From contig JADGKB010000006.1 of the NCBI GenBank assembly GCA_027604185.1, positions 124,001-188,000 on the forward strand: DNA of 64,000 nucleotides. The letters run 5' to 3'. The notes below the pieces were generated by a model. It made no database searches, was not told the DNA's origin, and worked only from the letters and a program-made list of their open reading frames with translations. Position numbers and translations under genes: made by a program. Below are positions 1,698-61,679 of the stretch, in pieces (within the stretch, counting starts at the first letter, position 1; every line of letters starts with the position of its first letter). The DNA is from Boothiomyces macroporosus. Taxonomy: Eukaryota > Chytridiomycota > Chytridiomycetes > Rhizophydiales > Terramycetaceae.

Positions 1698-2580
1698 ATG
1701 ATATTGAATGTCATATCAACAGTAGCTGTCGTTTTTGCAATTATTTTGATTCTGACTTTATTCTATTACGAATATAATGGATTATTTCAAAGGTCTTATA
1801 GTCGGTTAATTATGGGAGGTCTCTTCCTCAACCAAATAGGCTTAATCCATCGACTGGTTGCAATACAATTGCCACCACTGGATATTACTCTGTTAATGGA
1901 TGGCATCAATAACGATTTCATAATTCTGGAAGCGCACCTGACTGGACTTTTCCTTGTATTGATTAACATCCAAACTCTGACGATTTTCAAGCCTTTGGAT
2001 GAGCGAATTACAAATCGAAAAATTGGAGTAATGTATGGATTCTTCCTTACAACTTACTTGGGAGGAGCTCTTGTCCACATTACTCAAAACTACCTTTCTA
2101 TATTAAGTCCCCTTTTAAACTATTTCATCATCTTGGAAACGGCTTCGTCATTGATGATGGATAACTTTATAGGAATATTTTTATCAGTCATTCTGCACCG
2201 AAAGCTTAAAAGCATTGACCAGGGAAACATTCTAGTAAAATCTGAACTAGGGCAACTGATTGGAGGTAATATTATTGCTGTGTTTAACGGCTGGGCAGCA
2301 TTCTGGCTGCTACTATATATTGAATTTAGATCGCCCACAGGTAAGCCTCATTGACGTAGATGACAACAGAACATACCTGTATTTTACTCAGTATGCATTA
2401 GTGTGCATACATGCATTGATTTTGGTAGTGATGTTTCTAAAAAATAAGCGGATCGCTTTGTTACGCAAAGAGGAGCTATCTGAACCATCAAAACCTCCAA
2501 TCTTAAAGAAATTGTCAACACGCAATAGTACAGCGAATGATAAATCAAGATACGCCCCAACAATTTTAGTGGAAAAGTAA
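1698..2580 (+). CDS. 7TM protein, unassigned family, copy 1
   Basis: Exons 1698-2340 and 2360-2580 are joined across a 19-nt intron and give 287 residues. Seven hydrophobic segments are visible (roughly residues 4-24, 38-56, 72-95, 112-130, 145-170, 185-205, 220-240), followed by a basic tail. It is clearly paralogous to the genes at 2796 and 11555. All three share QxPPLD after TM2, the block LINIQTL in TM3, then LDxRIT, and an intron at the same phase-1 position just before TM7. I do not recognise the family. The topology would suit a receptor or a membrane sensor, but there is no diagnostic motif. The tandem arrangement with copy 2 suggests recent duplication. Confidence 0.85.
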
Positions 2581-2777
2581 AGATTACATGGTCAGAATCT
2601 CCTTGGAATCAGTTTCTAGAGTGTTCTTTAGACTATCGTTTAGCTTCAATCCAAACTATACCAACGCGCCAATCAAATGGACAATACAATAATCATATTA
2701 ATCCAATTCAAGGAATAATTCCAATAAACGATAATAAACCAGACTAAATTCTTTCTGAAATCTATCAAAATTCTAGT

Positions 2778-2785
2778 TGACGTCA
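2778..2785 (+). promoter_or_regulatory. perfect TGACGTCA (CRE) box upstream of 7TM gene 2
   Basis: A perfect palindromic TGACGTCA ends 10 nt before the ATG at 2796. It matches the cAMP-response-element consensus and has counterparts before both paralogues. Its closeness to the start codon implies a very short 5' UTR or a transcription start immediately around it. Confidence 0.5.
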
Positions 2786-2795
2786 GCTTGCCAAC

Positions 2796-3696
2796 ATGAT
2801 TGAAATTATTTCAAATACCGTCCTGGTACTCGCTGTAATATTAATACTGTCGCTCTTTATATACGAGTACAATGGATTATTTAAAAGATCTTACAGCAGA
2901 ATAATTATAGCTATCATGGTGCTCAATCTACTAGGGTTGATTCATAGAATAGTCCTGAATCAGTTGCCACCACTTGATGTAAAGAACAAAACTTCAGATG
3001 CGATACAGAATGATCTTTTAGTGGTGGAAGGTCATCTCACTGGATTATCGCTATTGCTGATCAATATACAGACACTAAATACATTTAAAATCTTGGACGA
3101 AAGGATTACAAAGACTAAAGTAAACATGCTCTATACATTTTATTCTAGCTGCATTGTATTTGCTGCTGTTGTACATGTAGCTGGTACTTTTATTAATTCA
3201 ATCAACGTTTTGGTGAATGCTACACTACTAATAGAAATGTTTACATCTCTTTTTCTGGATAATTTTATAGGGATATTCTTGTCTGTTACGCTATACAAGA
3301 AATTACGCCAAGTTGCTGTAGACCAAAGAGTGGTAAAGACAGAGATTGCCGGACTGATACTTGGAAACATTATCGCGATATGTAACAGTTGGGCAGCAAT
3401 CATTTTCTTCATATTAATCCCATTCATATCGCCAGATGGTAAGCTTCAACTAACAAGACAATTCTAGAAATTACTATTACTTTACACAGTACGCATTTGT
3501 ATGCATGCAGTCTATAATTATTATTGCAATGTTTTTGAAATACAAGAGGATTGCGCTGTTGAAAAGGCAAGATGAATTGGTGGAATCAAAGAAACCCTCA
3601 TTGAAAAAATTGTTGATGGAACAGAATTCAAACAAGGCCGGAGAAGCAGCCACTGTTCTAACTACACAACTAGTAGCTGTAGTTGGTATAATGTGA
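2796..3696 (+). CDS. 7TM protein, unassigned family, copy 2
   Basis: Exons 2796-3438 and 3458-3696 are joined across the 19-nt intron 3439-3457, which contains a perfect ACTAAC branch motif four bases from its AAG acceptor. The spliced product is 293 residues. It has the same seven hydrophobic segments and signature motifs as copy 1 (QLPPLD, LINIQTL, LDERIT), and the intron falls at the same codon. The C-terminal tail is shorter and differs in sequence. The stop lies only 11 bp from the stop of the MED8-like gene on the opposite strand. Confidence 0.85.
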
Positions 3697-3707
3697 AAGA
3701 TCTCTAT

Positions 3708-4008
3708 TCATTCGCACAACAGGTCGCTCGGTTGCATTTGATTCTTTCCATACTCAGCCATTAGTATGTCTACCGACTCTGCACATTCTGGAAATACACT
3801 AAACACAGGCATCAACACCACAAATAAATTCAGATTCATACAGTTCAGTAATCGCACCATATATGGAAGAAATTTCAAAGAATTCGGGCCATGTTAATGT
3901 ACTAGGATCCTGGTCAAGGAAATAAAGCACTTTTACAATATTATCCCTGATTCTTTCTTGATATTGATTAAAAGACAGGCTGACATAATTATGATGTCAA
4001 CGGTCCAT
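3708..4008 (-). CDS. MED8: Mediator subunit 8-like gene (exon structure unresolved)
   Basis: The minus strand carries a long open stretch containing a helix followed by LTWPEFFE, which resembles the TWP-containing core of Mediator subunit MED8. A second open stretch in another frame (with FPECAESVDIL, ending at the TGA 3708-3710) resembles the following FP..E..L segment of MED8. No 18-22 nt GT-AG intron joins the two frames. The only frame-correct GT-AG choices are about 31, 34 or 43 nt, and a 45-nt intron would be needed after a short ATGGACC first exon. Either this gene has longer introns than all its neighbours, or it carries a frameshift or sequence error. It lies 44 bp downstream of the MLH3 stop on the same strand. 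Confidence 0.45.
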
Positions 4009-4052
4009 GATTGTTTCATTTACGAGAACGTTATGAACTCTTAACAGAGAGT

Positions 4053-5696
4053 TTATTTTAATGAAATTAAAGGTGCTATTGATGGCCGCCCGTGAGCACA
4101 TTGAAACGGAAACTATCTTAAATCCAACTACCTTGCATTTTAACAGTGACTGTATGATCCATTCGCACTCTGCCTTAGATAGTTTCATTCCAAACATTAT
4201 TGCTGATCGGCAAGCTTTGGATTTAAAATGATCTACAACTGGGTTTGGGACTAAATCCAGCCCTACAGTTTCGTAATAGTCCAAAGAGTCTTTAATGATT
4301 TGAGCAAGTACATTTAATTCGGTTGTTCTAAAGTCCTTTCTGATTGTAAATCCTGTACAGTTTAGATGAATACCAATTCTAAGCAACTTTTTACAGTGCT
4401 TTTTCGCTTGCTCTTGATAATACGGCTCAAATGAATATTCAAATTGCACAGGTGATATGTCGCTAACGAAACAGTGCAGATACTCTTCCAATTTGATACG
4501 TTCGTGAGCAGCATGCTGATCAACCACCAGAATCAAACCATCAGCTTGGCAAGCAATGAATTTCTTGTCTACTTGGCCAATCACTTTTATCTTTTTGAAT
4601 TGCTCAACATTTAAACTCACCAAAGTGCCTTCTTTACATCTTGGCAGTGGTTGCTTGGGAAGCTCTACAGGATTAACCCATTCAAAATTAGATCCACAAC
4701 GATTCAATGATAGTGGCTTTGGAGCACTGGTAGCCTTGTATACTGGTGTACTCACTGTTTGTACTCTCTTGGGCTTTTTGTGTTGAGTCATTTTTACATC
4801 ATGTGCCAAATTAGAATCAGATGATGGCCCAAGTGCGCTAGCAATCAACTGTTCCAGAAAGCTTATATTCTACTTTTAATTGCTTTTACTTGGAATATAA
4901 TTCCGCCGCTCCGTTCAATGAAATCACTCGGAACCCGTATATCCAAAAATAGTCCATTGCAAAATCTCTTGCAAAATCTCCTCAATGAAAACTCTGGTAT
5001 CTTGTTGATATCTGGTTAGTGATATATACAAATGTAGTAACGTTGCAACGGCAAGTAAAACCCGCTGATCTGAAACTCTCCTTGAACAATGGACGGGATT
5101 TCTCTACCTTGGACGCGAAACAGATTCTGAAATGAGCGGAGAGAGCTTCTCGCTCTTTCAATATGGAAACTAGTGTACTCTGAACGGTAAGAAATGCTAG
5201 TATGAGGATTAATCAATGCATATTTGATTATCGAATTTTTCATCTCACTTTCATCAATGGTTTGCCTTATTGGTGTTGAATAAAACAAACCCCGACAGCA
5301 CACCACTGTGCCTTCGCCAAGCAGTAGTCGCTTGATTTCTTCCTTTCCGTTTCGAATTAGCTTGTAGCTGACAATATTCTTGTGCTTGGAAATAATTTCA
5401 AGTTCTTTGCTAATCGAAGCAACTTGGCACAGCGCTTGGTTAAAGACAAATACTCTTCCCTCTAAACCCATAAGTATTGTTCGAATACACTATGTCAGGA
5501 AATTCAAACCATTGGCGGTACCAATCCACTCCAAATCGGCAAACCCTGTTCCATTATCAGAACAGATGACGGTAAATTCAGTCCAGTTCACGGCTAGATC
5601 TATCTTGGACGATTGCGAATCAATGCTGTTCAGCATCAATTCAATGCACACCTTCAAAACAGAGTCCAAACAATACAGTGCAGCAATTTTTTCCAT
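4053..5696 (-). CDS. MLH3: DNA mismatch repair / meiotic endonuclease MLH3
   Basis: Six exons (5696-5510, 5489-5454, 5434-5030, 5011-4890, 4869-4132, 4112-4053) are separated by introns of 20, 19, 18, 20 and 19 nt and encode 515 residues. The N-terminal GHKL ATPase shows ELMLNSID and SDNGTGF, then TYGFRG. The C-terminal domain has the metal-binding endonuclease motif DQHAAHERIKLE, the MLH3-type ACRSAIMFG block and, only after splicing, FPFQCAHGRPS. With MLH1 it should form MutLgamma, which nicks DNA in mismatch repair and resolves meiotic crossovers. The protein is short for MLH3 because the linker is reduced, but all catalytic motifs are intact. The 18-nt intron 5012-5029 is the shortest in the window. 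Confidence 0.9.
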
Positions 5697-9335: not shown

Positions 9336-9357
9336 AATAAACAGTTTTTCATTTATT
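9336..9357. terminator. back-to-back poly(A) signals of two convergent genes
   Basis: AATAAA at 9336-9341 serves eEF3. TTTATT at 9352-9357 is AATAAA on the minus strand and overlaps the TGA stop (9357-9359) of the convergent small gene. The two 3' ends therefore overlap within about 50 bp. Confidence 0.6.
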
Positions 9358-9803
9358 CATTGCCATACTATTGTCGCATGTTTGTCTGCAAGCTGGTTGA
9401 TCTTGTCTACAATGGATTTGAACAGCTTCTTTTGTTCCGGGGTTGGCATGACAGAAGAAGGTGATGAATTGCACCCTTGGTTTGGTAGATTTTGCCACTG
9501 GAAACCTTCAGCTTCGATTTTCACAGAGACATCGAATCCGTAAATATCCATACACCCAGTTGGCTTCTCCATTGGCAGCCCTTTAAACTCATTAATGAAA
9601 GCGGTCACTTCCCCTATTTCGCTTGCCTGCAAATCCGCAGATTTCGTTTGCAAGTATCCTTCAACCGCTTGCTGATCGCTTGATTTTAAAAACTTTTGAA
9701 TAGAAACTTTTCTATTTACTGAATCGATAATAACTGATCTTTTAGGCACAGGTGGTGCGAATCCTCCTACCACACCTTCAACTACTTGGACTGAAAACGA
9801 CAT
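9357..9803 (-). CDS. 148-residue protein of unknown function
   Basis: The frame starting at ATG 9803 encodes 148 residues. I recognise no family, signal peptide or membrane segment. The N-terminus is hydrophobic/glycine-rich (VVEGVVGGFAPPVPKR) and the C-terminal third is amphipathic helix. The frame is open further upstream, but that part overlaps the 3' end of the TCD gene, so the internal ATG is preferred. Only 25 bp separate this start from the stop of the same-strand gene upstream, so co-transcription or a promoter inside the upstream gene is possible. Confidence 0.65.
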   Translation of the reverse strand: MSFSVQVVEGVVGGFAPPVPKRSVIIDSVNRKVSIQKFLKSSDQQAVEGYLQTKSADLQASEIGEVTAFINEFKGLPMEKPTGCMDIYGFDVSVKIEAEGFQWQNLPNQGCNSSPSSVMPTPEQKKLFKSIVDKINQLADKHATIVWQ

Positions 9804-9828
9804 TTTTGAAAAAATAATTTCACAAAAA

Positions 9829-11194
9829 TTAGCGATATTTATTGAGTTGGTTTTCCTTTGCAAATCTGGCTTGGACATAGTCAACAAACTCTTGGCCGTA
9901 TTTTTCTACAAACTGCGAAGGTTGGAGGGCCATGTGTTTTTGAGCTTCTTGTTTGGTCAAGCAGATGATATTCCCGAATTTTGGGAGTTTGGTAGGGTCC
10001 CATCGGACCATTACCAATCGGTCATTGACTGTTCCGTCAATTGCGCTTTTTCCTCTCCAAGTGTCTTCAAATATGAACCCCAAGTCTTGCGCAGTGAGGT
10101 AAATCTTTACAGTGCTACGTTAGATAGGAAATACTCTTTGCCTTGCAGTTTGCTCTCAAGTGCGTAATGATCCTTGTAGAATCTTTCGTACATTCGCTTG
10201 TTTCCTTTGGCACTTAGTGGCTCTGTTGGAAAATCTGCCAGTTCAGTCAATACATGAGAGCACATTGCATTTCCAAATAGTGCTGGGATTGTACCCAGAA
10301 CTGGCAATATTCTGGATCTGAAAGATGGCAAAGTAGAATACTGGTCTGCTTCTTCAACTTTCGACTCTTCCAAAGGCAATAATTTCACACTTCCTGGTTT
10401 TTCAGTAGAATAGACCACAGGGAATCTAGCATGGCAGTTCTTCATTTTCAAAATGCCTCTAGTTGACCTTGCAAGAGGATCTTCAAATGTTTCACTAATG
10501 TCTGCAACTTGAATTCTGAATTAATTCCAAATACCTAGAAGGATCCGCTTTGGCACCAGCTCCCATTGAAGATATGACTCTAATCTTGTTTTCGATACAG
10601 TACTGAATCAATTCAGCTTTAGTTTCCAAGTGGTCAATACAGTCTTGTTAACATCTAGTTACCTAGAACATAATCTGGATTACTAGCCAACAACTCCTTT
10701 GCCTTTGCCAATTCAAATAATTCTACTTTGGCTTCAATATTACAGTGCGGTACTATTTGCAGCAAGTGGTTTTTCATTGCAATTACTTTGGGGATTCCGA
10801 CATCCTTTCTAGTAGCAACTGCATGACGGTTTAATGAAGATAATGTAACTTGGTCGAAATCAATAAATCTGACGTGCTCTACTCCTGACCTAACTAATAA
10901 ATGTGCGGCATGAGACCCAACACCTCCCAATCCAACAACGATAACAAATGATTTACGCACTTTATCCACACCTTCTTTACCAAGGAATGCGATATTCCTT
11001 GACAACTGTTCATCCATCAATTCCTGGTATTCCTCCTCTTTGTCGAAAAAAGAAAGTTCAGACTTGATATTCCTGATTGTTTTTTGTTTCTGAATACGAT
11101 ATACTAGCGACAAGCCTAAAGCGGTTATAACTGAGCTTGTTATAGCCGTGGTTAGTATTGGCTTGGCATTGAATATCTTTGCTATTTCTTCCAT
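9829..11194 (-). CDS. tRNA threonylcarbamoyladenosine dehydratase (TCD1/TCD2, E1-like)
   Basis: Four exons (11194-10663, 10643-10535, 10515-10135, 10114-9829) with introns of 19, 19 and 20 nt encode 435 residues. The N-terminus has a hydrophobic anchor (residues about 15-32), as in the yeast mitochondrial outer-membrane Tcd proteins. The ThiF/MoeB/E1 fold follows, with the nucleotide motif GLGGVGSH, then NRHA and, after splicing, VLDCIDHLETK, SSMGAGAKADPSR and VLGTIPALFG. These are hallmarks of the TcdA/Tcd family, which cyclises t6A to ct6A at position 37 of ANN-decoding tRNAs. The C-terminal FEDTWRGKS block is also typical. A divergent gene (7TM copy 3) starts 361 bp away. Confidence 0.9.
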
Positions 11195-11554
11195 CCTGAA
11201 AAAAAAATCAAAGGCAGATATTTTGAACGTGAATCACTGATGCATGATCAAGTTTTATTTCCATTGAGCGCGGAATTCCATATCAAATTGAATATTTCCG
11301 ACTTTGCAATTTCTACGACTTTGATCATTAGAAGGCTTAACACTGTCTTTAAACTCTGAGTGTTTATAATCAGTGTTAGCTTGAACCCTAAACGTCAGTA
11401 TCGTCTCACACTCGTTTCTATACCACGCGGAATATTTCAGCATGTCCTAGTGTACCTCATTTGCGAACCTGCCAATTTGATTTTATCTTGGGAATCAATT
11501 CTTTCCTCTCTGGCGAGGAAAGCTTATATGCATGATGACGTTTTCCATTTTCCA
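11195..11554 (+). promoter_or_regulatory. divergent intergenic region with TGACGT box
   Basis: These 360 bp separate the TCD start from the 7TM copy 3 start. TGACGT at 11536-11541 lies 13 nt before the 7TM ATG, matching the position of the same box before its two paralogues. A frame open upstream of 11555 would add about 65 non-homologous residues, so I do not treat it as coding. Confidence 0.45.
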
Positions 11555-12410
11555 ATGAACATCCAACTCCTTTCAGATACCTCATTGATAATTGTCATCA
11601 TTGGTGTATTAGGACTGATAGTATACATCATAGCAACACGGTTAATACAAAAGAGTTATGCAAAGCGGATTACTATTCTCCTGGTATTGGATTTAGTTGG
11701 TCTGGTCCATAGATTGGTAGTGAATCAAATGCCACCACTAGACTTGGGAAACACAAATAATCAGATACATAATATTTTCCTCATTATTGAAGGCCATGCT
11801 GCTGGATATATCATTTCATTGATTAATATCCAAACGCTAAATATATTCAAAGTGCTGGATCCAAGAATCACTAAAACAAAGATATACTGCTTGTACGGAT
11901 ACTATACCATATTGTTTGTACTAGACACCATCTTTCATGCTATTCAAGACTATTCACCAAATTTGCAAATCTACTTTATCGTCTTGATTGCTTTTGAAAT
12001 GATTTGTGTATTCATTTTGGATAATTTTGTTGGAATTCACCTGTCGATAATACTTGCTAGAACGCTTAGGGAACGTAAACTGGAGGAACGAGGCGAATTG
12101 GTGCCTCTTGTCATTGGAAATGTTTTTTGCGTGATTAATAGCTGGTTAGCAACAATCTTCTTTATGCTAGTAGATCAGTCTTCTCTAGATAGTACTCTTA
12201 TTTGACATAGACACGTCTAAAAACTATCTCTACTTTGTGCAAGATTGCTTAGTGTGCGTTCAAACCATTGTTGTAGTATTAATGTTCCTGCGGTACAAGA
12301 AAATCGCATTGTTAAAGAAGCAAGAACCAAATATTCTCAAGAAATGGATTCAAAAATACCGCAAAGTATTTCCCGAGAACCAAAAGATTACAGATATTGA
12401 TACCAATTAA
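11555..12410 (+). CDS. 7TM protein, unassigned family, copy 3 (dispersed)
   Basis: Exons 11555-12191 and 12211-12410 are joined across a 19-nt intron and give 278 residues. The ATG at 11555 is chosen because it aligns with the N-termini of the two tandem paralogues at 1698 and 2796; an in-frame ATG at 11528 is the alternative. It shares NQMPPLD, LINIQTL and LDPRIT and the phase-1 intron before TM7, so the intron predates the duplication. The tail is basic. Its 3' end is 19 bp from the convergent SppA stop. Confidence 0.85.
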
Positions 12411-12429: not shown

Positions 12430-14447
12430 TTATTCCAATTTAATATCATTGCTAAATGAATATTCATGGCTGATTTTAGGATTAAATTCATTCATTGCTT
12501 CAAATGTCATTGTTTGTAATACGCCAGTAAAGAATTGTGCAGTTTCATACTGAACTAGCTTTACAAAGTCATTTGCACTGCTAGAGTTGGATAGTCTTTC
12601 AAGTAGAGTAGGTGCTTTAGGGAATACTTCTGTTTCGATCCAAAGAGGGTGATTTATATCAATTTTTTGGTTTTGTAATGCTTCGTTTGTAGCAGCGAGA
12701 ATAGCAGCGCCTAAGCCTCCCATTTTATCCACCAACTTGTGGTCATTAGCTTGTTTTCCTGACCATACTTGACCCTGAGCAACTGTTTCTACATGATCCA
12801 TCGATAGCTTTCTGCCTTGACTTACTTTCTCCTTGAATGTCTTGTAAAATTCTTGTACTTGTTTTTTAGATCGTTCCCAATAGTTATCCCCAAGATCATT
12901 CATTAGCGATGCGTTTTTAGCTCCTTCAGAAAAGTAGTACTGGTCAAAAGTAATACCAAGCTTTTCAAATATTTCGGGTGGTATGACGGGCCTCATTAAC
13001 GCTACACCAATGGAGCCGGTAATTGTGCCTGGACTGCTGAAAATAGTCTTGGAGGAAACAGAAGAATAAACACCTAAATTAAATAACCATTACCCCCAGA
13101 AGCACACATATTACCATAGCTGGATATAACTGGCTTGTTGTACTTTTTAGAGACGTAATCAACTGTCTCCCAAATAGTATCTGAAGCAATAACATCACCA
13201 CCACCAGAATCGATACGTAGTACGATCCCGCCTACTTCTTCATCTTCAGCAGCTTTTATTAATGCCTTTGAAACAGTAGTAGATCCAAAAGCACCGTCAC
13301 CCCTATTGATTGTACCAATCATGTTAACCACTCCAATTTTTAGCTTTCTTTCGTATCTCTTTGAATCTTTGATTGCTTCAGTGTTCTTGGCATTGTAGTA
13401 GCGTACGAGAGAAATAGCGGGATGGCCATCGATTAAGGAATCTTTAAACAAAGGGGTAAGCTCCCTCTTGTAGGCAATTTTATCAACCAGGTTGTACTTT
13501 ACGCATTCAGAAGCAACCAAAGGAGAAATATCCATCAACGACTCCAGTGTTGCCTAAAGTTACAACTAAATTACCTTTTCATCACCTTTGCCAAATTTAA
13601 TCCTTCTTGAATTCCCAATTGTTTCTTTAAACTGGTCATTCAAGTTACTTAATAGGTTGTTCATGTTCTCTTTTTGCTTTTCTGGAAGCGTGGTCTCAGT
13701 ATAAGACGAGATAACCGACTTGTAATCGCCAATTGCGAATGCTCGAATTTTCAATCCTACTTTTTCAATTAAATTTTTAAAAAACTACAGTCAGCTAATG
13801 CTTACCGTTCTTGATGAAGCAAATCCGTTTAATGGAATGTTTCCAGTAGGCTCCATTCGTATTTCATCAAACACAGTCGCGAGATAGTAATCCATTTGGC
13901 TTTCAAACGTGTCTGTGAATGCAACCGTTTTAAAAACTCCTTTCCCCATTCTCTTTTCTTTTGCTTTTTTCAACATGTCAATTGATGTACGCAATTCTTG
14001 CAGTTGGGCGAATCCTAACCCAGAGGTTGTACCAGTACGGCTGAAATCCACGTATAATCCTTTAATTCTATCATCATGCTGAATCCATGTAAGCAGCTTG
14101 ATCAAATTAAGAAATGTGATTGAGGGTTTGTGAGGAGCAGTAGATACCAGTGTACTAAGACCTGAATTCGTCTTTGGGGCTTCTGTGACCGCGATATGGT
14201 TATATTTCCAATATACGACGGAATTGTCTTCGATATATAGCATTTCTAGTCGTTTTTGATATACCCTGGCAACACCAGATAATACCACCAAGCCAGAGCC
14301 AGCTAAAAATGTGTACCTCGCTAAGGTACCCGCCTTCTTTGTATAATTCCATCCTGACTGAAATCTCTGCTTCCACTGTGACTGAGTTGAATTGAGCCTT
14401 TTGGGCAAGTGCAAGATTTTGAATTTTTTCATAAACAATTTTTCCAT
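12430..14447 (-). CDS. SppA-type serine protease (signal peptide peptidase A / protease IV)
   Basis: Four exons (14447-13806, 13784-13575, 13553-13094, 13073-12430) with introns of 21, 21 and 20 nt encode 651 residues, close to the 618 of E. coli SppA. A basic, Ser/Gln-rich N-terminus and a hydrophobic segment near residues 40-60 suggest an organellar membrane anchor. The N-terminal half contains GDYKS with the catalytic lysine. The C-terminal half has MCASGG with the catalytic serine, completed only by splicing into CASGGVYSS, followed by SPGTITGSIGV. SppA proteins degrade residual membrane peptides in bacteria and chloroplasts; in fungi they are uncommon, and mitochondrial location is my inference. 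It shares a 128-bp divergent promoter with kinesin. Confidence 0.9.
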
Positions 14448-14575
14448 TGGATTCTACTATTAATAGCGAGTCTCATATTCCATTCATTAATCCTTTTAAT
14501 GTATTTGAAACCGTCGTTGCGGTTCAGGCTTTTACTTCAAGCCACCTTAAATTTGCTTTTGTCTTTTTTAAACAA

Positions 14576-17453: not shown

Positions 17454-17503
17454 TCTAGAAACTCCACAGAAATCATTAAATGCTAAACGCTCTTCATGGT
17501 ATG

Positions 17504-17701
17504 TCAGTTTATTGAAAAAATAAAAAGTCTTCCATTGAACATGTCCAGTTGGCTGGTGTTGCTGCTGCCGATTGCACTGAAGTAGTATTTTTTGGTCTTG
17601 TGGGATATTTCAGTGAGGAGTTTTTGCATGAGTGCTATGTGGATCGAGTCCATTGCACAATCAAGTCGGATTTGTTTGGGTTGATACCTCAACGTTGACA
17701 T
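17504..17701 (-). CDS. small hypothetical protein (65 residues)
   Basis: A 65-codon frame starting at ATG 17701 lies in the 378-bp gap between kinesin and the helicase. The protein is mildly basic with a predicted helix in its first half; I recognise no family. Minus-strand AATAAA (17508-17513) lies directly before the stop codon, a layout seen for several confirmed genes here, which mildly supports it being real. It has no intron with the usual features. Confidence 0.4.
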   Translation of the reverse strand: MSTLRYQPKQIRLDCAMDSIHIALMQKLLTEISHKTKKYYFSAIGSSNTSQLDMFNGRLFIFSIN

Positions 17702-29245: not shown

Positions 29246-29326
29246 AGAAATTTCTCTAAACTTTGAATTACGCGTCGTGAAAATACAAGATGACGTATGA
29301 CATAAATCGGTGACTTTATTTTATGA

Positions 29327-38627: not shown

Positions 38628-41191
<2,564 letters not shown>

Positions 41192-45163: not shown

Positions 45164-45170
45164 ATTATAG

Positions 45171-46135: not shown

Positions 46136-47580
46136 TTAGAAAATGTGCTTTTGGAATGCCTCAGAATTTGCAAATCTGGCAATCTTGTTATCTATCAAAG
46201 AGTCCTTTATGTGAGAATCCAGTGTATCAAATAAATCGATATGCAGCTTGTCTGAAGTTGACAGCTCCTGTACTTTTTTGCAAATGTCGACTTTCATCTT
46301 GAACGGAAGATTCATCTGACATTAGTTCAAAGTACCTCATTGATTGCATTCGCCATTAGGAATTCTTCCACAATGCGGTTTCTTTGCACTTTGAGTAAAC
46401 CGATATTTCCCATTCGTGCGATTTTGCGATATTGCTCAATAGCTTGGATGAATATTAGAGTTTCCACGCAATATTCTCGTGCCAAAAAGTCGCTGAATAA
46501 TTCCAAGAGCGCAGGGGTAGCTAAAATTTTGTTTAGTAATTCCCTTAAATCTGACCTTTTGGAATTTTGATCCAAGACAAGTTGCTTTGGTTTTAATATA
46601 AACAATTTCTGGGTCGCATTTGGGTTGATAGTGCAGGTAGTACCTGTAGAGCTGGTCCTCCGGTGATCTATTGTCTTTCTGAACTGTTTTTGTGGAGCAT
46701 TGTAAGCTCTTTGATCCAACCACTTTGTGTAGAACATCATAATCAATGGATAGATCAATGCCAAAAAGTAGAGCACCGGCAAGCACATTAGTTTCAAAAT
46801 TGCAATATAGTCGACTGGTGAAAAGTAATATGCAACTGATTCAAACACATAGATTGACATTACTAGAATTTCAAGCCAGTATTGATTCGTGATTCCAAAT
46901 GCGTGATATTTAACACTATATTAGCAGCAGTGTACCTTTTGCAAATAACTATCAGTACAATACTCTGAATAATTATTAGACCAACGTGTACGCTACCCCA
47001 AATTTGTACGAATAGAGATTTGGGTAGTGCAGCCCACAATACAACATACAGGGCTATCACGAAGCAGGAAATAATAGCGTACAGTGTCCAGATATACCTT
47101 GTGGAAACTAGCGGTTTTACTCTTTTCAAGTGATCTTCCAGATTATTGGGCAACCCTGAATTTCTAGACTGATGAACTTGCTGCTGAAGGGTAAGAAATT
47201 GCTGTTGGTTATAATATCGCATATATATTGGTGCATAAGCGTAAACTGCTAGAATTTCTAGGTTAGATATATCTACGAGCAATGTCTGTTAGCAGGATAA
47301 ATACACCGCTATGAGGAATAACACCTTGCTTCATTAGAAAGAGTAATGCGACATGAACTGTATCGATGAATGCTTGAAATTGTACAAGAATCCATGAACG
47401 GTGAATTATTGCTGGTTCATTCCTAAAGTAGATAAATAATGGCAGTGAAGCTGTCAATAAGAGGATCTGTATTGATAATCTAATGGACAGGTATAGGGAT
47501 TCGCTATCCATAGGAAACTGTTGTGGGTCTACTATTTTCCATCCATGGTTACGCGCCATTGTTTGCCCAACGATGCCCAT
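46136..47580 (-). CDS. seven-transmembrane RGS protein
   Basis: Four exons (47580-47277, 47257-46936, 46915-46336, 46315-46136) with introns of 19, 20 and 20 nt encode 461 residues. Seven hydrophobic segments occupy about residues 25-275. A basic cytosolic linker and an RGS domain follow (LNKILATPALLELFSDFLAREYCVETLIFI, then I..EFL..NA..E, and C-terminal helix DLFDTLDSHIKDSLIDNK completed by the last exon). RGS domains accelerate GTP hydrolysis by G-alpha; the 7TM-RGS layout is known from plant RGS1 and some fungi. The ATG at 47580 overlaps the divergent DNAAF4 start; ATG 47559 is the alternative and would leave 13 bp. Confidence 0.9.
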
Positions 47581-49001
47581 AGTCGTAAAAGGAGAGATTT
47601 GTGATTCAAACAATCAGTTGGTAATCACTATACCGTTAAGGAACGTTCATCCAACCAAAGTAGATGTTTATTCGAATGATCTCTATGTTAAAGTCCACTT
47701 TCCTCCATACTTTTTCGAATATGATTTATACGACAGGATAGATCCAGAAGAGAGTGTCGCATCTATTGGGGAGGGGTTAGCGATACTAAAGTTACAAAAA
47801 AGAGAACCCAAGCTGTGGGACAAGACTCAATACACGGGAGATGATATTAAAGAAAGAAGACAAAAGGCAGAGGAGGAACAGCTTAAATTTGAAAAGGAGG
47901 TTCCTCGTCATTAATACTAGAAAAAGCATTCGAAGCTCGTCCAGAAGAGAGAGAAAGAGCGGGATCTTGTTCGTACACAAATCACGGTTGAGCAAGAGAA
48001 GAGGGAAAGTATTCAAAAAATAAAGGACAAGGAACTTGAAGACACAAAGAATAATTTGGCTTCATGGTCAAACGAAATTAGGGAAAAGGAGATCCAAGCA
48101 AAGTTAGATAAACAAGAGATGGAAAGCAAACAGTTTATAAAGGAAAAGAACGATTCAGGATTCTTTACCAGCGAAGATTATTCCTCTGCGACGAAAAAGA
48201 ATTCCATAGGAACAGTTATATTTACAGACGAAGACATGGTTGTAAAAAACACGGATGATTTGGATCAGATAAAGCTGGAAAGTGATGACGATTCTGATAT
48301 TGATGTGGAAGCAATACGAGCGTCTGTACGAGCAAAGCTATACAAGGATGATTCACCTGCTCCACGACGCGAAGGCACAACTAATGTCAATATTTCATTC
48401 TCATCAAGAGGATCTATTCCTACTACAACAGCGAGAGAAACTGAAGATGGTACTTTCTACTAACAACAGAAAAATGGATGACTAGAATCAAGCTGATAAA
48501 AGCTATGCATGCAAGAAACGAAGAAAACAAGACTGCTGAAATCAAGGAAGGAGAAACATGTACACATCACTAATTGTAGCGGAAACTTTGAAAGAAAAGG
48601 GGGATAATCAGTTCAAGCTTGGTAACTTTGATGGTGCGCTCAACGCATACCATGACTCACTAACGCTCGACCCGTTAAACTACAATTGTTTATCCAACAG
48701 AGCGGCATGTTACTTGAAAAAACAAGAGTTAGAAAACTGTATCAAAGACTGCACTAGAGCATTGGAGTTGGTGGAACGTGAAGAAACAATCATCAAGGAC
48801 GAGTTGAAAAAAGACGATGGGCTCTTGAACGACCGCTTAGCAATTAAAGTAAAGTTGTACGCTCGACGGGGATCTGCGTATTCTGTGAATGATTTGAAAA
48901 AAGGTCTTGAGGATTACGAATCCGCATTGAAAATAGATCCACAGAATACTAAAATCCAACAAGATGTTGATCAATTGCGAAATATGCTCAATAAAGCCTA
49001 A
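47573..49001 (+). CDS. DNAAF4: dynein axonemal assembly factor 4 (DYX1C1)
   Basis: Four exons (47573-47899, 47921-48449, 48470-48559, 48580-49001) with introns of 21, 20 and 20 nt encode 455 residues (human 420). The order is an N-terminal CS/p23 domain (LVITIPLRNV, YVKVHFPPYFFEY), a charged coiled coil, the EKWMTRIKLIKAMHAR linker and three C-terminal TPR repeats (KEKGDNQFKLGNFDGALNAY, NRAACYLKKQELENCI, GLEDYESALKIDP). DNAAF4 works with HSP90/HSP70 to preassemble axonemal dynein arms. Its presence is direct evidence for motile flagella in the life cycle. Intron 48450-48469 contains a perfect CTACTAAC. Confidence 0.93.
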
Positions 49002-51185: not shown

Positions 51186-52655
51186 ATGAATTATTTCGAC
51201 AAATTAGTCCACGTACTGAATACCGGAAACGACCAGTCAGAGCTATCTATTGGGGGACTTTCAACCGTGGAGATCGAAACAGTAGCTACTATTAATTTCT
51301 AGGGACACCTTTCCAATGATACAATCAAGGATGCATTGAACAGGACAATTACCAAGAATTCTAGATTATCTTCAATTATTAGGGATTTCGACACTGTTCC
51401 TGCCGGAGATGTGCTCTCAGACTTGGTTGTAAACTGCAAGATAACCAAAGTGCAAGAAAACTGGGATATGAAGGCAAAACAGGCAACTTTAGAGTTTTTG
51501 TTAAACTATCAGATCGACCACACTCAATTGCCATGGCATATGGAATTTTTCAAATCTCCAATATTCAAAAAGGGAGATAAAAAGTATGTGGAGCTACATG
51601 TCGGAATTAAAATCTCACATGCACTGACAGATGGTATGGGAATGACGATGATTTTGAAATCATTTGTGGAAAGTTTGTCTGAAGCGATGGAATCCAAAGA
51701 ACCTATCTCGCAAGATACTCTTCTTACAAAGGAAGGAGGTCCTTGCTCATACAAGCATCAGAAAATCTTGGATCCAAGATTTGGTGATTTCGGGATATTT
51801 TGGATCTTTGTTTTCCTATGGAGAGCAATTTATGGGCAGTTAATCTTACTTTATATTCTACATGGCTTATTCTTTCCTGTCTACAAGTACAAGAGCTCAC
51901 TGGATCCAGCGGCACTGAAGAATAAAAAGGTGGAACGGTTGAATGGGTATCGCCACTTGAAAATCAACAAGGATTTAACTGAAAGCTTGAGGGCAAAAGC
52001 AAGAGCACAGGGATCCACTGTAGGAAGTGCCTTACAAGCCGCTTGTATGATTGCGTCAAGGAAATTGATTGAAAAGAAAGATGGCCATAGCGAATATTTC
52101 AACTATGTCAACATCGTCAACATTAGACCTTTTAGTGTTTGCGAACCGCATGTTATTTCAGAGATGAAGGGGAATTCTATTCTTAATCACAACAACTATG
52201 GCTATCATATGACTTCAAAAGATTTGTTTTGGGAACACGCCAAAAAATTAAAACACAAAATGAATCACTTGGTATCCTATACTGGGGCTTCATGCAAGAT
52301 GCTACTAATGATCCCGCGTCAAGTTATACTGCAATTATACAGTTTGCAAAAAGTTCACCACCAGAGAGACTACTCTTTCGTTATGTCTAACGTTGGCAAT
52401 TTCAACAGAGACCAAGTCAGCTGGGCACCAAAGATTACTGTAAAAGACGTTTGTGGAACTGCCAGTACCAACTTTAGAGGAAACAGGTGCTTGTTTGGTG
52501 TTACCAGCATAACTATTGATGGCGAACTAGGATTGAATATTGTCTTTCCAGCTTATTACGTCCCCGATGAAGATGCGGATTTCTTTGTAGAAATGCTTGA
52601 ACATGCACTCGCGTCTGCTGTTGAAATCAACGCACCATTAGTAGCAGAATGCTAA
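51186..52655 (+). CDS. HxxxD acyltransferase, membrane-associated, copy 2
   Basis: Exons 51186-51281 and 51303-52655 are joined across a 21-nt intron and give 482 residues. It is collinear with copy 1: catalytic HALTDG, hydrophobic hairpin GIFWIFVFLWRAIYG.., VNIVNIRPFS, and the SNVGNFNRDQVSW block. The intron lies in both genes shortly after the first helix but at different codons (after residue 10 in copy 1, residue 32 in copy 2), so at least one was gained, lost or shifted after duplication. The substrate is unknown. A short direct repeat of GTTAGTAGCAGAATG straddles the end of this gene (52635-52690). Confidence 0.82.
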
Positions 52656-52800
52656 CTATTAATAAACGTTGAACTGTTAGTAGCAGAATGTAACTGTAAA
52701 CTTTATCTTACTGATGACACCTTGCAAATCACTACAATCCGCATCCGGGCAAAGCCACTTTTCATCACCAAAAAATCATTCGCAATTAATCTCCTTGCTA

Positions 52801-57522
<4,722 letters not shown>

Positions 57523-57548: not shown

Positions 57549-58927
57549 TTATTTACTAATCTCATATATCAAGCACATATTGGTGGATACACCTTCCCAG
57601 CCTCGTGTTCCTGAAGTTGTCACTAAAAAAGATTCATTGAAATCTAGATTAATTACAAATTACGCATTGCAGAGATTAGTCCACCATGATGACCAGGTAT
57701 AATAGAGAACGGTACTAAAGGTGCCAACAAATCTTGGTCAACAGACACATCAGCAGATTTTTCTTCAGGCTTGGGAATTGGTTCATTATTAGCACTGAAA
57801 AAGTCCATATTGAATGAATCATTAGCAAATGATGGAAAGAGATCATTGTTTTCGGTCTGGAACATTGCTTGATCTGCATTTGGTTTAACTGGTTTTGCTG
57901 TGGCTACTTCTTGTGCCAAATGTTCTAGATCCCAAAGTCTCAAATTATCGTGGGAGGCACTAGAGTTACTTTGTGTTACATTAGTAGATGCCTTGAAGGT
58001 AATGCTCCTACGGAGCTAACTCTTCCAGAGCTATTTGGCAGTTTCAAAGTTTGAAGAAGACTGCCTGAGGCATAATCAATCTCATCCACTGAAGCGTTTC
58101 TTCGGCCAACATACATTTTGGAGCCATCTGCGCTCCAACATGCCGACATTGACCAAGCGGGAGCTCCAGAAATACTGGCAGGTATCTTTTTAACAAATCC
58201 ATCTTTTTTGCGAATATCGTAAATATAAATAGACCCGTCATAACAGTTTGCAAGAAATACATTTGTCTAGGTTAGTGATGTATACATTATTGGGATGAAA
58301 CTCTAATGCCGTTATGTGAGTAGACAAATCTGAATATTCGGTTATCACTGACCCATCATCCAAGTCCCATAGCTTGACTAATTTGTCCCATGAGCCGCTA
58401 ACTAGTGATCTTTCTTCTGGTGCAATTTGAAGTGCAGAAACCACATTTTTGTGTCCTTTCAGAACATGCTGCAGCTAGATTAATGGCAGTTACTTTTCCT
58501 TCTTCGTGTCTAACAGTCCATAGATTAATATTGCCCGTTTGATTTCCAGTTACCAGCCATACAGCCTCAGAGTGCACATCCATGCTGTATACAGGTGATA
58601 TTTTAGGTGGGTCTTCTGGTGTTGGTCCTGGTCCATCTTCATTTTCCCAAGCAGATATCAATGCTCCACCTTTCTGGATAGTATCTACCAACCCATGCTT
58701 TTGCGCACCAGTAAGATTCGCGCCGCCATTAACAGATGCGATAGTATCATATTTTCTAATGAACCCTAGCATTAGGATTGGTAACCATCTTCGCCTCCAG
58801 TAAAGATCCATTTGTAATTCCTTGTCGCTACCGAGGCATTGATTCCGCATGGATGAACTGCCGATATCTCTAATCAGGTAAGAATTACTGTGGGGACAAT
58901 CTCTAGCTTTTTCTCCTCCTGAACCAT
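57549..58927 (-). CDS. SPT8: SAGA complex subunit SPT8 (WD40)
   Basis: Seven exons (58927-58889, 58867-58786, 58765-58494, 58474-58286, 58266-57980, 57959-57664, 57643-57549) with introns of 21, 20, 19, 19, 20 and 20 nt encode 419 residues. WD40 repeats read WIFTGGEDGFIRKYD, VTGNQTGNINLWTVRHEEG, LVSGSWDKLVKLWDL and, across an intron, LLIASHDNLRLWDL. The last exon, found only by splicing, supplies SGTRGWEGVST, the conserved SPT8 ending. SPT8 links SAGA to TBP. The acidic N-terminal extension of yeast Spt8 is absent. The first acceptor is GAG, rare here. The stop is 26 bp from the AROM stop; the start is 31 bp from the U1A-like start. Confidence 0.93.
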
Positions 58928-58958
58928 CTTTGAGAAAAATTATTTTTTTGCGATCTTC

Positions 58959-59607
58959 ATGACTTCAATACCACCAAATCAGACTCTATATGTGCGAGGA
59001 TTGAACGATAAAATCCCTAAATTACAACTCAAGAAACAGCTTTATTTCCTGTTCAGTCAGTTTGGACGAGTCCTGGATATCGTAGCAAAAAAGACAATCA
59101 AAGAACGGGGACAAGCGTTTATTTGCTTTGATGATCTGCAAGGAGCAGCGGCAGCAATGAGGACGCTTCAAGGATTTGTGATTTTCAACAAACCGATGGT
59201 ACGTACGAGTTTATTCTAGACAATCCAGTACAGCAAGACAAAATCCAACGTAATAAAGATTAGAGATGGCACCCTGTTCAAGAAAGAAAAGAGAGGAAGA
59301 GAAGACGAAGACGAAGGTGAAAACAAGCGAACCAGATTGGACGATCAAGGTAGATTTGCTTTAAATGATAGACCATCAAACCCTGTTTGTTACCAATCTG
59401 CCACCAACAGCAACAGAAGATTCAGTAGCTACTCTATTCCAGCAATACGACGGGTTTGTTGAGCTTCGAATGGTGCCAGCAAAGCCGGGGATTGCTTATG
59501 TGGAATTTACGTCTTTGGAGAACGCAGTCGCAGCATTGAACGTTCTCAATGGATATGTCATCACTCCAACTAATACATTGAAAATAGTATTACATAATTC
59601 TGAATAA
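58959..59607 (+). CDS. U1A/U2B''-type spliceosomal RRM protein
   Basis: Exons 58959-59198, 59220-59349 and 59372-59607, with introns of 21 and 22 nt, encode 201 residues. Two RRM domains flank a short charged linker. RRM1 starts NQTLYVRGLNDKI and has RGQAFICFDD and KPMTIQYSKTKS, the pattern of U1A/U2B''. RRM2 has TLFVTNLPP and ends LKIVLHNSE. Fungi usually keep one protein of this type serving U1 or U2 snRNP. RNP1 here is RGQAFICF. AATAAA (59603-59608) overlaps the TAA stop. Confidence 0.93.
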
Positions 59608-59623
59608 ACTTTATTGAAATGAA

Positions 59624-60478
59624 TTAAGCAGAGTTGTCTTTTCCAGACATTTTATGGGATGAACTCACTTGGCCAAATACAATCTTTTTCGCAGAGATAT
59701 AAGATAGATCTAGGAAAGTGTGCAGCTGCAGAGCATATGTCCACGACGGCATAAAGAAGCCGGTGTGGTCGATGTAGTTGTCATCGAAATAATCCCAGAC
59801 ACCAAACACTGCGATTGTAAAGTTGAGTAGCAAGATTGCAATCAATCTCATACCTATTGGTGTCACTGCTATATCCGCAAATGTTTTTTGTCTTTGCTTG
59901 CTATGGGAAGATGTCAAAGCATAGATGAATGCAGTGGACCCACACGCAGAAAATATACCTTCAGCTGCCTGCCCGATAGCTTCAAATAATCCAATATCCT
60001 ATAATTAACCAGCAATTACCCTGAAGTGAACATTCGTTGCTAGCTGAGAAACCCCGATTTGAAATTGATACGACACAAGACACCCAAAGAATGAGCCAAC
60101 CCCTTTGAATGCCAAAACGATTAATTGGAATGCAATCATGACTTTGAAAATAGTGGAGCTTTTTCCAAAGAAGATTTTTACTCTGTAAACCATCATTGTC
60201 GTAATTCCTAATGTAGTTAGGATATTCAGCAGGTAATTTGCGACCAGCACATAACCAATGTTTGTCAATTCATACGGCGACATGAAATAATCCAGCCCAA
60301 TAAACTGTGCAATTATAAACAGTGCTAGTATAATCCATGTAAAGAATGACGACTGCCATAGAAATGATTTTGCTGAATCGAGTTTGCTGAATAAAATTAC
60401 AGAAGCGGTTGCAAAGTCGTGAAATGCAAGTCCTAAAAATATTCCTGAAGGAGTTCCATAAGCGTTGAAATCCCTCAT
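59624..60478 (-). CDS. 7TM protein, unassigned (family 2)
   Basis: Exons 60478-60020 and 59998-59624 are joined across a 21-nt phase-0 intron and give 277 residues. Seven hydrophobic segments are visible, the fifth created by the exon junction (DIGLFEAIGQAAEGIFSA). I recognise no family and it does not share the signature motifs of the 1698/2796/11555 family. It is divergent from another 7TM gene at 60702, with 223 bp between starts. Function unknown. Its 3' end is 16 bp from the U1A-like stop. Confidence 0.8.
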
Positions 60479-60701
60479 GTTTAGTAAGAATGGAAAATGA
60501 AAATTCCTTCATTAATTAATAGCGCCCCAATGTTTCAAGGATTGTTCATGTGTACTCACCGCTGGTAGGGGGTGGGGGTGTCAAGCCAAAACAATGACAT
60601 ACATCTGCGAGAGCCAGCGGTAGGGCTAAAAATTACAAAGAAAAAAATGAGGCAACCATTGAACGAATATATTTAAACCCCAGAGGGCTATTCACCATCA
60701 A

Positions 60702-61679
60702 ATGATTTCACAGGACCAATTTGGTGTTTTGTGCTCTTGCGGGTTGATTCTAGCTGGCAGTGTTGAAACATGCTTTGTTGCAAGATACCTGTTGCGTGTT
60801 GATGTAAAGTCAACCATGCTATACAGAGTAGCTACTCTGGGGTTTGTATCCAGCTTGATTTTTCTGTTTTGCGATTTGATTATCATCTTTTCAATGGCTT
60901 TGGCGTTATTTAATCAAATTCAAGGAACAGTTAATCTTGGAAACCTTTTGCTTGCATTCCAACAAATATCTCTCTCCTTCAAGTTCTTGGTAGTAGCCAG
61001 CATTGGATACCTTATACTATCAAGAATCAGAGCGTTTTATGGACTCAAGTCAAAGCAAGTTATTTTCCACATTATATTTTACTCTGTAGTCACACTATCA
61101 AATTTGACAGCAACGGTATTGACGATTTACTCGTTCCAAACACTCCAATATCCTGATTTATTTGTACTAAACCAATTCAACTTGGTTCCACACCATGCAA
61201 GCTTTGAGCGGATATTTATCGATGGTAGATTTACAAAGGTAAAGATGATTTAATTGTAGCTGATTTTTAATATTTATCAAATATCGTTTCTTTCAGAAGC
61301 TCTTCTTATTACCGCGGGAACAGCAATCTTTTATAGGACATTGGCAAACAGGAGTGGATTGAATAATAGCGAAACAACCAAGGCAATCACCAATGATTCA
61401 ACCTTGATCTTGCTATTTGTGGTTTCTGGAATGGCAATCTGCAAGTCATTAATGACGTTTGTTAGACTTTCCTCCGCTTATGCCTCTATTGCTGCAGATT
61501 TGGTTCTCTTTTTATCATGTGCACAATATCCGTTGGAACTGTATGTATTCCTAGTATCTACCTATGAAACCAGTAGAGATATTGTAAATTCACCAAAGAA
61601 AATTACGGATGATGTTGCACCAATAACCGATATCATTGCTCAAGAGTATTTCGAACCAGACTCTCCTGCGACTCTTTAG
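60702..61679 (+). CDS. 7TM protein, unassigned (family 3)
   Basis: Exons 60702-61238 and 61260-61679 are joined across a 21-nt phase-0 intron and give 318 residues. Seven hydrophobic segments and a hydrophilic acidic tail are visible. The segment spanning the second exon start (LIFNIYQISFLSEALLITAG) is interrupted by a stop if the intron is kept. Size and topology resemble the neighbour at 59624-60478, but I see no clear shared motif. An A/T-rich TATATTTAA (60668-60676) lies 25 bp before the ATG. Confidence 0.8.

What the first reader, a model, noticed from the sequence alone, without database searches (positions are those of the whole stretch)
1698..61679. All 77 resolved coding introns are 18-22 nt long
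Frame arithmetic plus restoration of invariant protein motifs (for example [12 protein letters not shown] in [17 protein letters not shown] in ADE5,7, KSSHVPYRDSK in kinesin, CAHGRPS in MLH3) fixes 77 introns in 25 genes: 18 nt x1, 19 x18, 20 x28, 21 x20, 22 x10. I know such lengths as the norm only from nucleomorphs and some ciliates; fungal introns are normally 50 nt or more. A whole fungal genome with a 20-nt modal intron would be a remarkable minimal-splicing system.
Basis: partly seen in the sequence, partly recalled or inferred. Interest (0 to 1): 0.95.

Follow-up and report, generated by a model that had tools for sequence, protein, structure and literature searches.

The report
Twenty-nucleotide introns throughout a fungal genome
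The genes of this chytrid fungus appear to be interrupted by introns only about 20 nucleotides long, among the shortest known, although the splicing-machine parts checked here look ordinary, so it could serve to ask how small an intron can be and still be spliced.

Summary
Confirmed, and genome-wide. The window belongs to the chytrid Boothiomyces (spliced ADE5,7 identical over 788 residues to a B. macroporosus protein). With no preferred length, a gene finder recovers one sharp peak at 19-22 nt in the window and on another contig; decoy dinucleotide pairs show no peak. My window models hold 90 introns of 19-22 nt in 25 of 34 gene models, plus one plausible 18-mer. A strict 19-21-nt consensus occurs 1072 times in the 15.2-Mb assembly, its reversed form 16 times, suggesting roughly 23,000 tiny introns. 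Anatomy: donor GUAAUU with +5 G mostly lost, branch A at position 14-15, AG 5-6 nt later. Yet the U1, U2 and U6 contact sequences and Cwc25's glycine plug look canonical, and SF1, U2AF65, Slu7 and Prp18 are present. So the machinery does not look reduced, although the 5'SS-branch spacing is far below the ~50 nt reported for human spliceosomes. No RNA was available, so excision is inferred. Five introns are already removed in a public gene model; ten library searches showed no paper on them.

The parts
1698..2580 (+). gene model with one 19-nt intron, 2341-2359
   Evidence: starts where the finding starts
2916..3696 (+). gene model (5' start uncertain), 19-nt intron 3439-3457
   Evidence: also found by the flat-length run
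3997..5696 (-).
9357..11194 (-). gene model with introns 9891-9909, 10115-10134, 10516-10534, 10644-10662
11528..12410 (+). gene model, 19-nt intron 12192-12210
12430..14447 (-). gene model with introns 13074-13093, 13554-13574, 13785-13805
14499..17523 (+). kinesin heavy chain (extreme N-terminus of model uncertain) with introns 14715-14734, 15437-15458, 16182-16202, 17243-17263, 17437-17458
   Evidence: spliced motor domain aligns to kinesin 1goj with no gap at the two junctions it spans
23690..24239 (+). gene model with introns 23815-23835, 23879-23900
25136..29245 (-). channel-like gene model: introns 25321-25340, 25582-25602, 25778-25797, 26056-26076, 27596-27616, 27858-27879, 28181-28201, 28346-28365, 29015-29034
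29327..35010 (-). channel-like gene model: introns 29512-29531, 29948-29968, 30095-30115, 30254-30274, 32657-32677, 33483-33501, 33743-33764, 33940-33960, 34066-34084
35182..36471 (+). RCC1-like gene (by eye): introns 35231-35252, 35599-35619, 35775-35795, 36135-36154
36743..37264 (-). zinc-finger-like gene (by eye), intron 36864-36884
37923..38522 (+). upstream gene that the model fuses to ADE5,7 (end = first stop when its last exon is read on): introns 37996-38016, 38131-38149, 38291-38311, 38351-38370
38721..41191 (+). ADE5,7 (GARS-AIRS) with introns 38818-38836, 38935-38956, 39024-39043, 40047-40067, 40976-40997
   Evidence: spliced protein letter for letter equal (788 aa) to public B. macroporosus HK103_005982
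41245..41828 (-). gene model with introns 41355-41374, 41545-41563, 41687-41706
41892..43595 (-). gene model with introns 42065-42085, 42432-42451, 42605-42624, 43188-43208, 43300-43319
43806..44740 (-). gene model with introns 44269-44287, 44618-44636
44761..45163 (+). gene model with introns 44832-44852, 44981-44999
46136..47559 (-). gene model with introns 46316-46335, 46916-46935, 47286-47304, 47532-47552
47573..49001 (+). gene model with introns 47900-47920, 48450-48469, 48560-48579
51186..52655 (+). gene model, intron 51282-51302
52714..57522 (+). AROM with introns 53135-53154, 53467-53486, 54720-54739; likely true start (by eye) is the later methionine MIHKVKI
   Evidence: spliced N-terminal 845 aa aligns to AROM 6hqv
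57549..58927 (-). WD40-repeat-like gene (by eye): introns 57556-57576, 57644-57663, 57960-57979, 58267-58285, 58475-58493, 58766-58785, 58868-58888
58959..59607 (+). U2B''/U1A spliceosomal protein with introns 59199-59219 and 59350-59371
   Evidence: aligns to U2B'' 5mqf_X
59624..60478 (-). gene model, intron 59999-60019
60702..61679 (+). gene model, introns 61239-61259, 61445-61465
   Evidence: ends where the finding ends

Best explanation
These are U2-type spliceosomal introns of the nuclear genome of Boothiomyces (Rhizophydiales, Chytridiomycota), held genome-wide to about 19-22 nt (the confidence below is for this part). Shown from sequence: GT..AG ends; donor consensus GUAAUU with the usual +5 G mostly lost; a YUAAY branch site whose A sits at intron position 14-15; the AG 5-6 nt further on, too close for a tract in between; about 2 introns per kb of coding sequence. 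Also shown: snRNA genes with canonical contact sequences, and genes for SF1, U2AF65, Slu7, Prp18 and Cwc25. Inferred, and less certain: an otherwise ordinary spliceosome removes them by intron definition. 5'SS and branch-site recognition must then be sequential or tightly packed, because U1/U6 contacts at about +1..+6 and the U2 branch helix at about 9-15 (recalled footprints) leave only 2-3 free nucleotides. SF1 is anchored by the branch motif, and the AG just after it is used. Introns would have been shortened to the smallest length that fits donor helix + branch helix + AG, which would explain why both spacings are nearly invariant.
For: Flat-length gene finding with decoys in the window and on a second contig. 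Motif-free set: best branch A at position 14-15 in 95 of 113 and 5-6 nt from the end in 98 of 113. Donor-to-branch/acceptor distances without any gene model: 71 pairs at 19-22 nt for GTA[ACT][ACT]T, mean 1.02 per length over 30-400 nt, at most 5 at any one length beyond 25; two reversed donors give 2 and 0 pairs at 19-22. Whole genome: 1072 strict matches vs 16 reversed; all 20 strict matches in the 264 kb sampled are predicted introns (those predictions used a motif-trained model). ADE5,7 with five introns removed equals the public protein exactly. Kinesin, AROM, U2B'', U2AF65 and SF1 align to solved proteins after excision. snRNAs U1, U2 x2, U6, U2AF65, SF1, Slu7 (76), Prp18 (77), Cwc25.
Against: No RNA data, so excision itself is not shown. 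The public protein is probably also a gene prediction and could share a bias. U1's canonical 5' end does not fit the GUAAUU donor at +5. SF1 and U2AF65 are kept although there is no tract after the branch site. U1 scores just under Rfam's cut-off (68.8 vs 69.5 bits) and U2AF65 under its curated cut-off (230.7 vs 310.3, matched in pieces; that family also rang in two bacterial controls, presumably through its RRMs). U5 was not found (that search rang in no control, so it is uninformative); U4 was not searched. One AROM junction (53467-53486) lies at a six-residue alignment gap.
Confidence: 0.93

Rival explanations
1. The introns are real (so this overlaps with the first part of the best explanation), but the machine is specially adapted: factors such as Smu1/RED (which relieve short 5'SS-branch spacing in human) or SPF45 (which replaces U2AF on truncated tracts) carry the load, or Prp8, Yju2 or Isy1 have changed.
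For: Human spliceosomes need about 50 nt between 5'SS and branch site, and Smu1/RED become essential when it is short (PMC6692369, abstract and passages). SPF45, not U2AF, serves some human short introns (PMC8363638, abstract). Here the spacing is 14-15 nt.
Against: None of the parts examined is visibly altered; the Cwc25 plug that differs in Stentor looks canonical here.
Confidence: 0.3
2. A second, sizeable class of ordinary-length introns exists and was missed.
For: 35 of 471 model calls are outside 18-23 nt, some with good motifs; 11 of 118 flat calls of 24 nt or more carry the full motif against 2-5 of 175-183 in four decoys.
Against: No second mode in the length-unbiased runs or in the gene-model-free spectrum. 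At least one motif-bearing long call (window 38291-38370) joins the donor of one short intron to the acceptor of the next; the other ten were not examined. Introns in untranslated regions could not be seen.
Confidence: 0.06
3. The segments are not spliced but bypassed in translation or removed at DNA level, or they are assembly errors.
For: No RNA evidence in hand.
Against: GT..AG ends with a YUAAY motif at fixed spacing, genes of the spliceosome, and genome-wide recurrence would have no obvious reason under these alternatives.
Confidence: 0.02
4. The contig is foreign (nucleomorph, ciliate or other contaminant).
For: Such lengths are described from those groups (PMC10245619, PMC6461891).
Against: Elongation factor 3 is 99% identical to a Boothiomyces protein, with other chytrids next; ADE5,7 is identical to a B. 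macroporosus protein; the same introns occur on another large contig and across the assembly.
Confidence: 0.01

Closest known systems
Chlorarachniophyte nucleomorph introns (Bigelowiella natans; PMC6461891, passages)
   Same: Length 18-21 nt, GU-AG, canonical U1 and U6 contact sequences, about 3 introns per kb of coding sequence (about 2 here)
   Different: 865 introns in a 373-kb relict genome with no obvious 5' motif beyond GU; here an estimated 23,000 in a fungal nucleus, with a GUAAUU donor and a clear YUAAY branch site
Stentor / heterotrich ciliate introns (PMC9505925, section 2 parts 1-2 and section 2.6)
   Same: Nearly invariant length and branch position; the single most abundant intron sequence (1.55% of 15-mers) also begins GUAAUU; canonical U1, U2 and U6 contacts; 5-nt tail after the branch A
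   Different: 15-16 nt with branch A at position 10-11 (here 14-15); the Cwc25 glycine plug is reported missing there and is present here
Mikrocytid introns (PMC10245619, abstract and passages)
   Same: Uniform, tiny, conserved sequence
   Different: 16-17 nt, 224 introns, strongly reduced spliceosome in a parasite; here none of the five protein families searched was missing
Blastocystis introns (PMC12817076, one passage)
   Same: Median 19 nt
   Different: Not a fungus; signals not compared here
Other fungal introns (PMC8476143 and PMC7426719, passages)
   Same: Spliceosomal introns; chytrids are intron-rich; Malassezia is said to have 'very short introns' (no number given)
   Different: Cryptococcus introns, called relatively short, average 63 bp; the passages seen describe no fungal genome with a 20-nt mode

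Membership tests
U2-type (major) spliceosomal introns | GT..AG boundaries | tested here: met
   Only GT-AG gives the 19-22 peak; 16 decoy pairs in the window and 9 on C1, both including GC-AG and AT-AC, do not
U2-type (major) spliceosomal introns | YURAY branch site near the 3' end | tested here: met
   98 of 113 motif-free introns have the best site 5-6 nt before the last base; 72 of 112 carry GTA plus a full YTRAY 5-7 nt before the end
U2-type (major) spliceosomal introns | U1, U2, U6 snRNAs with matching contact sequences | tested here: met
   U1 is just under Rfam's cut-off (68.8 vs 69.5 bits) but matches end to end; donor +5 does not match U1
U2-type (major) spliceosomal introns | removal from mRNA via a lariat | not testable with these tools
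   no RNA data
U12-type (minor) introns | RTATCCTT donor and TTCCTTAAC branch site (recalled) | tested here: not met
   consensus donor GTAATT, branch YTAAY; this speaks of the bulk; minor snRNAs and single introns were not searched
Nucleomorph-type tiny introns | 18-23 nt length | tested here: met
Nucleomorph-type tiny introns | no 5' motif beyond GU | tested here: not met
   +3 A 0.86, GTAATT commonest
Heterotrich-type tiny introns | 15-16 nt, branch A at position 10-11 | tested here: not met
   19-22 nt, position 14-15
Heterotrich-type tiny introns | Cwc25 lacking the N-terminal glycine plug | tested here: not met
   predicted Cwc25, taken from an internal methionine of a fused gene model, begins MGGGDLNLKKSWHP like the solved CWC25 5yzg_X
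Reduced spliceosome (mikrocytid / microsporidian type) | loss of many spliceosomal proteins | tested here: inconclusive
   5 of 5 protein families searched were found (U2AF65, SF1, Slu7, Prp18, Cwc25), and U2B'' is in the window; the full set was not surveyed

The most novel reading that the evidence does not exclude
A fungus with a complete, canonical spliceosome (no snRNA change, SF1/U2AF kept, Cwc25 plug kept) removes some 23,000 introns whose 5'SS-branch distance is about 14 nt, less than a third of the ~50 nt given for human spliceosomes. The published minimum would then not be a limit of the conserved core but of the human assembly route. Loss of +5 G, seen also in Stentor's most abundant intron sequence, could be a convergent mark of tiny introns on which U1 and U2 cannot both sit.
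Probability: 0.5. Interest if true: 0.9.

Novelty: new variant of a known kind. Interest (0 to 1): 0.85.

Why it matters
Work on human B complexes puts the minimum 5'SS-branch distance near 50 nt (PMC6692369, abstract and passages). A chytrid (Boothiomyces is free-living and culturable, as recalled) that works genome-wide at 14-15 nt would make that limit testable without parasites, nucleomorphs or giant ciliates. It also suggests that tiny introns need neither the reduced spliceosome of mikrocytids nor the missing Cwc25 plug of Stentor. In practice, a survey that discards introns under 30 bp, as PMC10639083 did (passage), would lose nearly every intron found here (443 of 471 calls are under 30 nt).

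Tried and rejected
(1) Loss of Slu7 or Prp18: considered because (recalled) yeast needs them only when branch-AG spacing exceeds about 7 nt; rejected, both genes are present. (2) Altered Cwc25 plug as in Stentor: rejected. (3) Compensating change in U1 or U6: rejected for the U1 5' end and U6 ACAGAGA. (4) Depletion of 3n introns as (recalled) in Paramecium: not seen; 21-mers fall between 20-mers (169) and 22-mers, and 40 of 122 lack an in-frame stop; detection bias makes this weak. (5) U5: nothing in the genome or in any control, uninformative. (6) Rfam scans of the window and C1:1-200000 found no family. (7) First genome-wide pattern had the wrong spacing and found only rarer 22-24-mers, 30 vs 7 reversed; the corrected pattern is. 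(8) One search stopped on a script error after its main counts; the rest was repeated. (9) Intron lengths of relatives (Terramyces, Globomyces, Batrachochytrium): only proteins were at hand; passages of three papers gave no lengths.


Full report
WHAT WAS CHECKED. A small gene finder (codon usage trained on the window's long open frames) could excise any GT..AG segment at one flat price. Over lengths 10-200 it already peaked at 19-22 nt, 32 of 69. Over 10-60 nt, 39 of 60 excisions were 18-22 nt long; 16 decoy dinucleotide pairs under the same rules made 31-67 excisions each but only 0-5 in that range, with no peak. With learned splice-site weights and a learned length prior (so no longer independent of length) the window holds 92 introns, 90 of them 19-22 nt (19x19, 20x28, 21x34, 22x9), in 25 of 34 gene models; a looser prior gave 100, again 90 at 19-22. 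The two others are model errors or unresolved (see observation check).

IDENTITY. Elongation factor 3 (6211-9306) is 99% identical to a Boothiomyces sp. JEL0838 protein; the next named hits are Globomyces, Batrachochytrium and other chytrids. The spliced ADE5,7 protein, made by removing five introns of 19, 22, 20, 21 and 22 nt, equals B. macroporosus HK103_005982 letter for letter over 788 residues. So the public gene model must already remove these five; whether public models do so for the other window genes was not checked. Boothiomyces is in Terramycetaceae, Rhizophydiales. The assembly is 15.2 Mb in 216 contigs.

PROTEIN EVIDENCE. After excision, ten window introns fall inside protein alignments without a gap at the junction: five in ADE5,7; two in kinesin against 1goj, one of them at KSSHVPYRDSK, the other with a one-residue gap three residues away; two in AROM against 6hqv, one of them inside [12 protein letters not shown]; one in U2B'' against 5mqf_X. 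Junction positions were computed. Of the remaining introns of the aligned parts, AROM 53467-53486 lies at a six-residue gap and U2B'' 59350-59371 at the very start of the second aligned domain. Outside the window, two of five U2AF65 introns lie inside a gap-free part of the alignment to U2AF65 6tr0, and the Slu7 profile matches in two pieces that meet at profile position 143 with 17 bases between them, where the finder places a 20-nt intron.

GENOME-WIDE. On 200 kb of contig C1 the flat finder gave 19:28, 20:57, 21:27, 22:16 of 215 calls of 10-60 nt; 9 decoy pairs gave no peak, 0-8 at those lengths. With learned weights and prior, window plus C1 give 471 introns, 436 of them 18-23 nt (18:1, 19:92, 20:169, 21:122, 22:46, 23:6). 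Counting 149 models of at least 240 coding bases: 433 short introns, 1.99 per kb of coding sequence, 2.9 per gene, 29 genes with none. Sixteen small loci from other contigs (at least two pairs overlapping, so not independent) give 92 of 100 introns at 19-22 with the learned model and 25 of 39 in the flat run. A gene-model-free test pairs donors GTA[ACT][ACT]T with YTAAY-N(1,2)-YAG ends: 71 pairs at 19-22 nt, mean 1.02 per length from 30 to 400, at most 5 at any one length beyond 25; two reversed donors give 2 and 0 at 19-22. In the whole assembly the strict pattern GTAATT-N(4,5)-YTAAY-N(1,2)-YAG occurs 1072 times, the reversed pattern 16 times. In the 264 kb sampled all 20 strict matches are predicted introns and make up 20 of 436, which scales to roughly 23,000 introns; the sample of 20 is small, and duplicated contigs (below) inflate the figure.

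ANATOMY. In the motif-free set of 113 introns of 18-23 nt the best branch A is 5-6 nt before the last base in 98 and at intron position 14-15 in 95. In the larger, motif-trained set of 433 the figures are 353 and 341. Nineteen-mers are mostly 14+5, twenties 15+5 or 14+6, twenty-ones mostly 15+6. The donor is GUA(A)-U-U: +3 A 0.84-0.86, +5 G only 0.13-0.18, +6 U 0.50-0.57; GTAATT is commonest. Flat-run calls of other lengths carry weaker signals (+3 A 0.49 against 0.86; -7 A 0.44 against 0.80).

MACHINERY. U6 has UACAGAGA, both U2 genes GUGUAGUAUC, U1 the 5' end AUACUUACCUG; U2 and U6 are over Rfam's cut-offs, U1 just under. U2AF65 is predicted with an arginine-rich N-terminus, a tryptophan motif resembling the U2AF35-binding one (by eye), two RRMs that align to solved U2AF65, and a C-terminal part matched by TIGR01642; that family match (230.7 bits, in pieces) is under its curated cut-off of 310.3 and the family also rings in two bacterial controls. 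SF1 aligns to solved SF1 over hairpin, KH region and zinc knuckle. Slu7 and Prp18 are present. Cwc25, read from an internal methionine of a model that the finder fused with its neighbour, begins MGGGDLNLKKSWHP and aligns to solved CWC25 from residue 1. All five protein families searched were found. U4, U2AF35, Smu1, RED, SPF45, Prp8, Yju2 and Isy1 were not searched; the U5 search was uninformative. Organisms of PDB entries are not named here because the tool did not give them.

HOW IT MOST LIKELY WORKS. Shown: the signals and their spacing. Inferred: intron definition by an otherwise ordinary spliceosome. In human B complexes the 5'SS and branch helices are 15 nm apart, an estimated minimum of about 52 nt, and shortening to 35 nt abolished assembly on one substrate (PMC6692369, abstract and passages). 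Here 14-15 nt suffice, if the introns are spliced as inferred. With about +1..+6 in the U1/U6 contacts and about 9-15 in the U2 helix (recalled footprints), only 2-3 nt are free, so simultaneous U1 and U2 binding in the human geometry looks hard; sequential recognition, or U1 leaving early, is the simplest way out. A weakened U1 contact (+5 G mostly lost although U1 is unchanged) fits that idea but does not prove it. Stentor's most abundant intron sequence (1.55% of its 15-mers) also starts GUAAUU (PMC9505925).

COMPARISON AND NOVELTY. Length equals that of chlorarachniophyte nucleomorph introns (PMC6461891, passages); Stentor is shorter, 15-16 nt (PMC9505925); mikrocytids are 16-17 nt with a reduced spliceosome (PMC10245619, abstract and passages); Blastocystis is given a median of 19 nt (PMC12817076, one passage). 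A 2025 paper counts 23 nt among the shortest known and compares it only with Stentor and Bigelowiella (PMC12316389, passages). Ten library searches listed no paper on 20-nt introns in Boothiomyces or any chytrid. Limits: three lists were capped (15 of 47, 5 of 24,324 and 12 of 396 shown), the four papers holding both 'Boothiomyces' and 'intron' were seen only as listings, most subscription journals are not held, and Malassezia's 'very short introns' (PMC7426719, one passage) were not quantified. Verdict: real and genome-wide by sequence, a new variant of a known kind, notable for the apparently unreduced machinery and the fungal host.

Noticed in passing
L045 (contig C49) and L046 (contig C100); also repeated pattern hits on C2 (280991 vs 323587) and C3 (205544 vs 227162): Identical 3.3-kb sequence on two contigs, and runs of repeated intron hits at a constant offset within contigs, suggest duplicated or haplotype-redundant stretches in the assembly.
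   Followed up: partly
window 25136-35010 (-): Two gene models (1307 and 1832 aa), fused by an earlier run into one of 3084 aa, hold four GQFFGEI motifs, two each, within channel-like and cyclic-nucleotide-binding-like segments. It may be a multi-repeat fused channel; the name is by eye, no family search was run.
   Followed up: partly
window 1698-2580, 2916-3696 and 11528-12410 (+): Three nearby genes encode similar-looking multi-pass membrane proteins with an intron near the same place, perhaps a gene family of unknown function (by eye).
   Followed up: no
window and C1:1-200000: No Rfam family reaches its cut-off and ARAGORN, run with its bacterial setting, finds no tRNA gene in 264 kb.
   Followed up: partly
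L023 and L024: Two U2 snRNA genes, differing mainly in the 3' half.
   Followed up: no
introns of window plus C1: No obvious deficit of 21-nt introns (a multiple of three), and 40 of 122 lack an in-frame stop, so their retention would not create one.
   Followed up: partly
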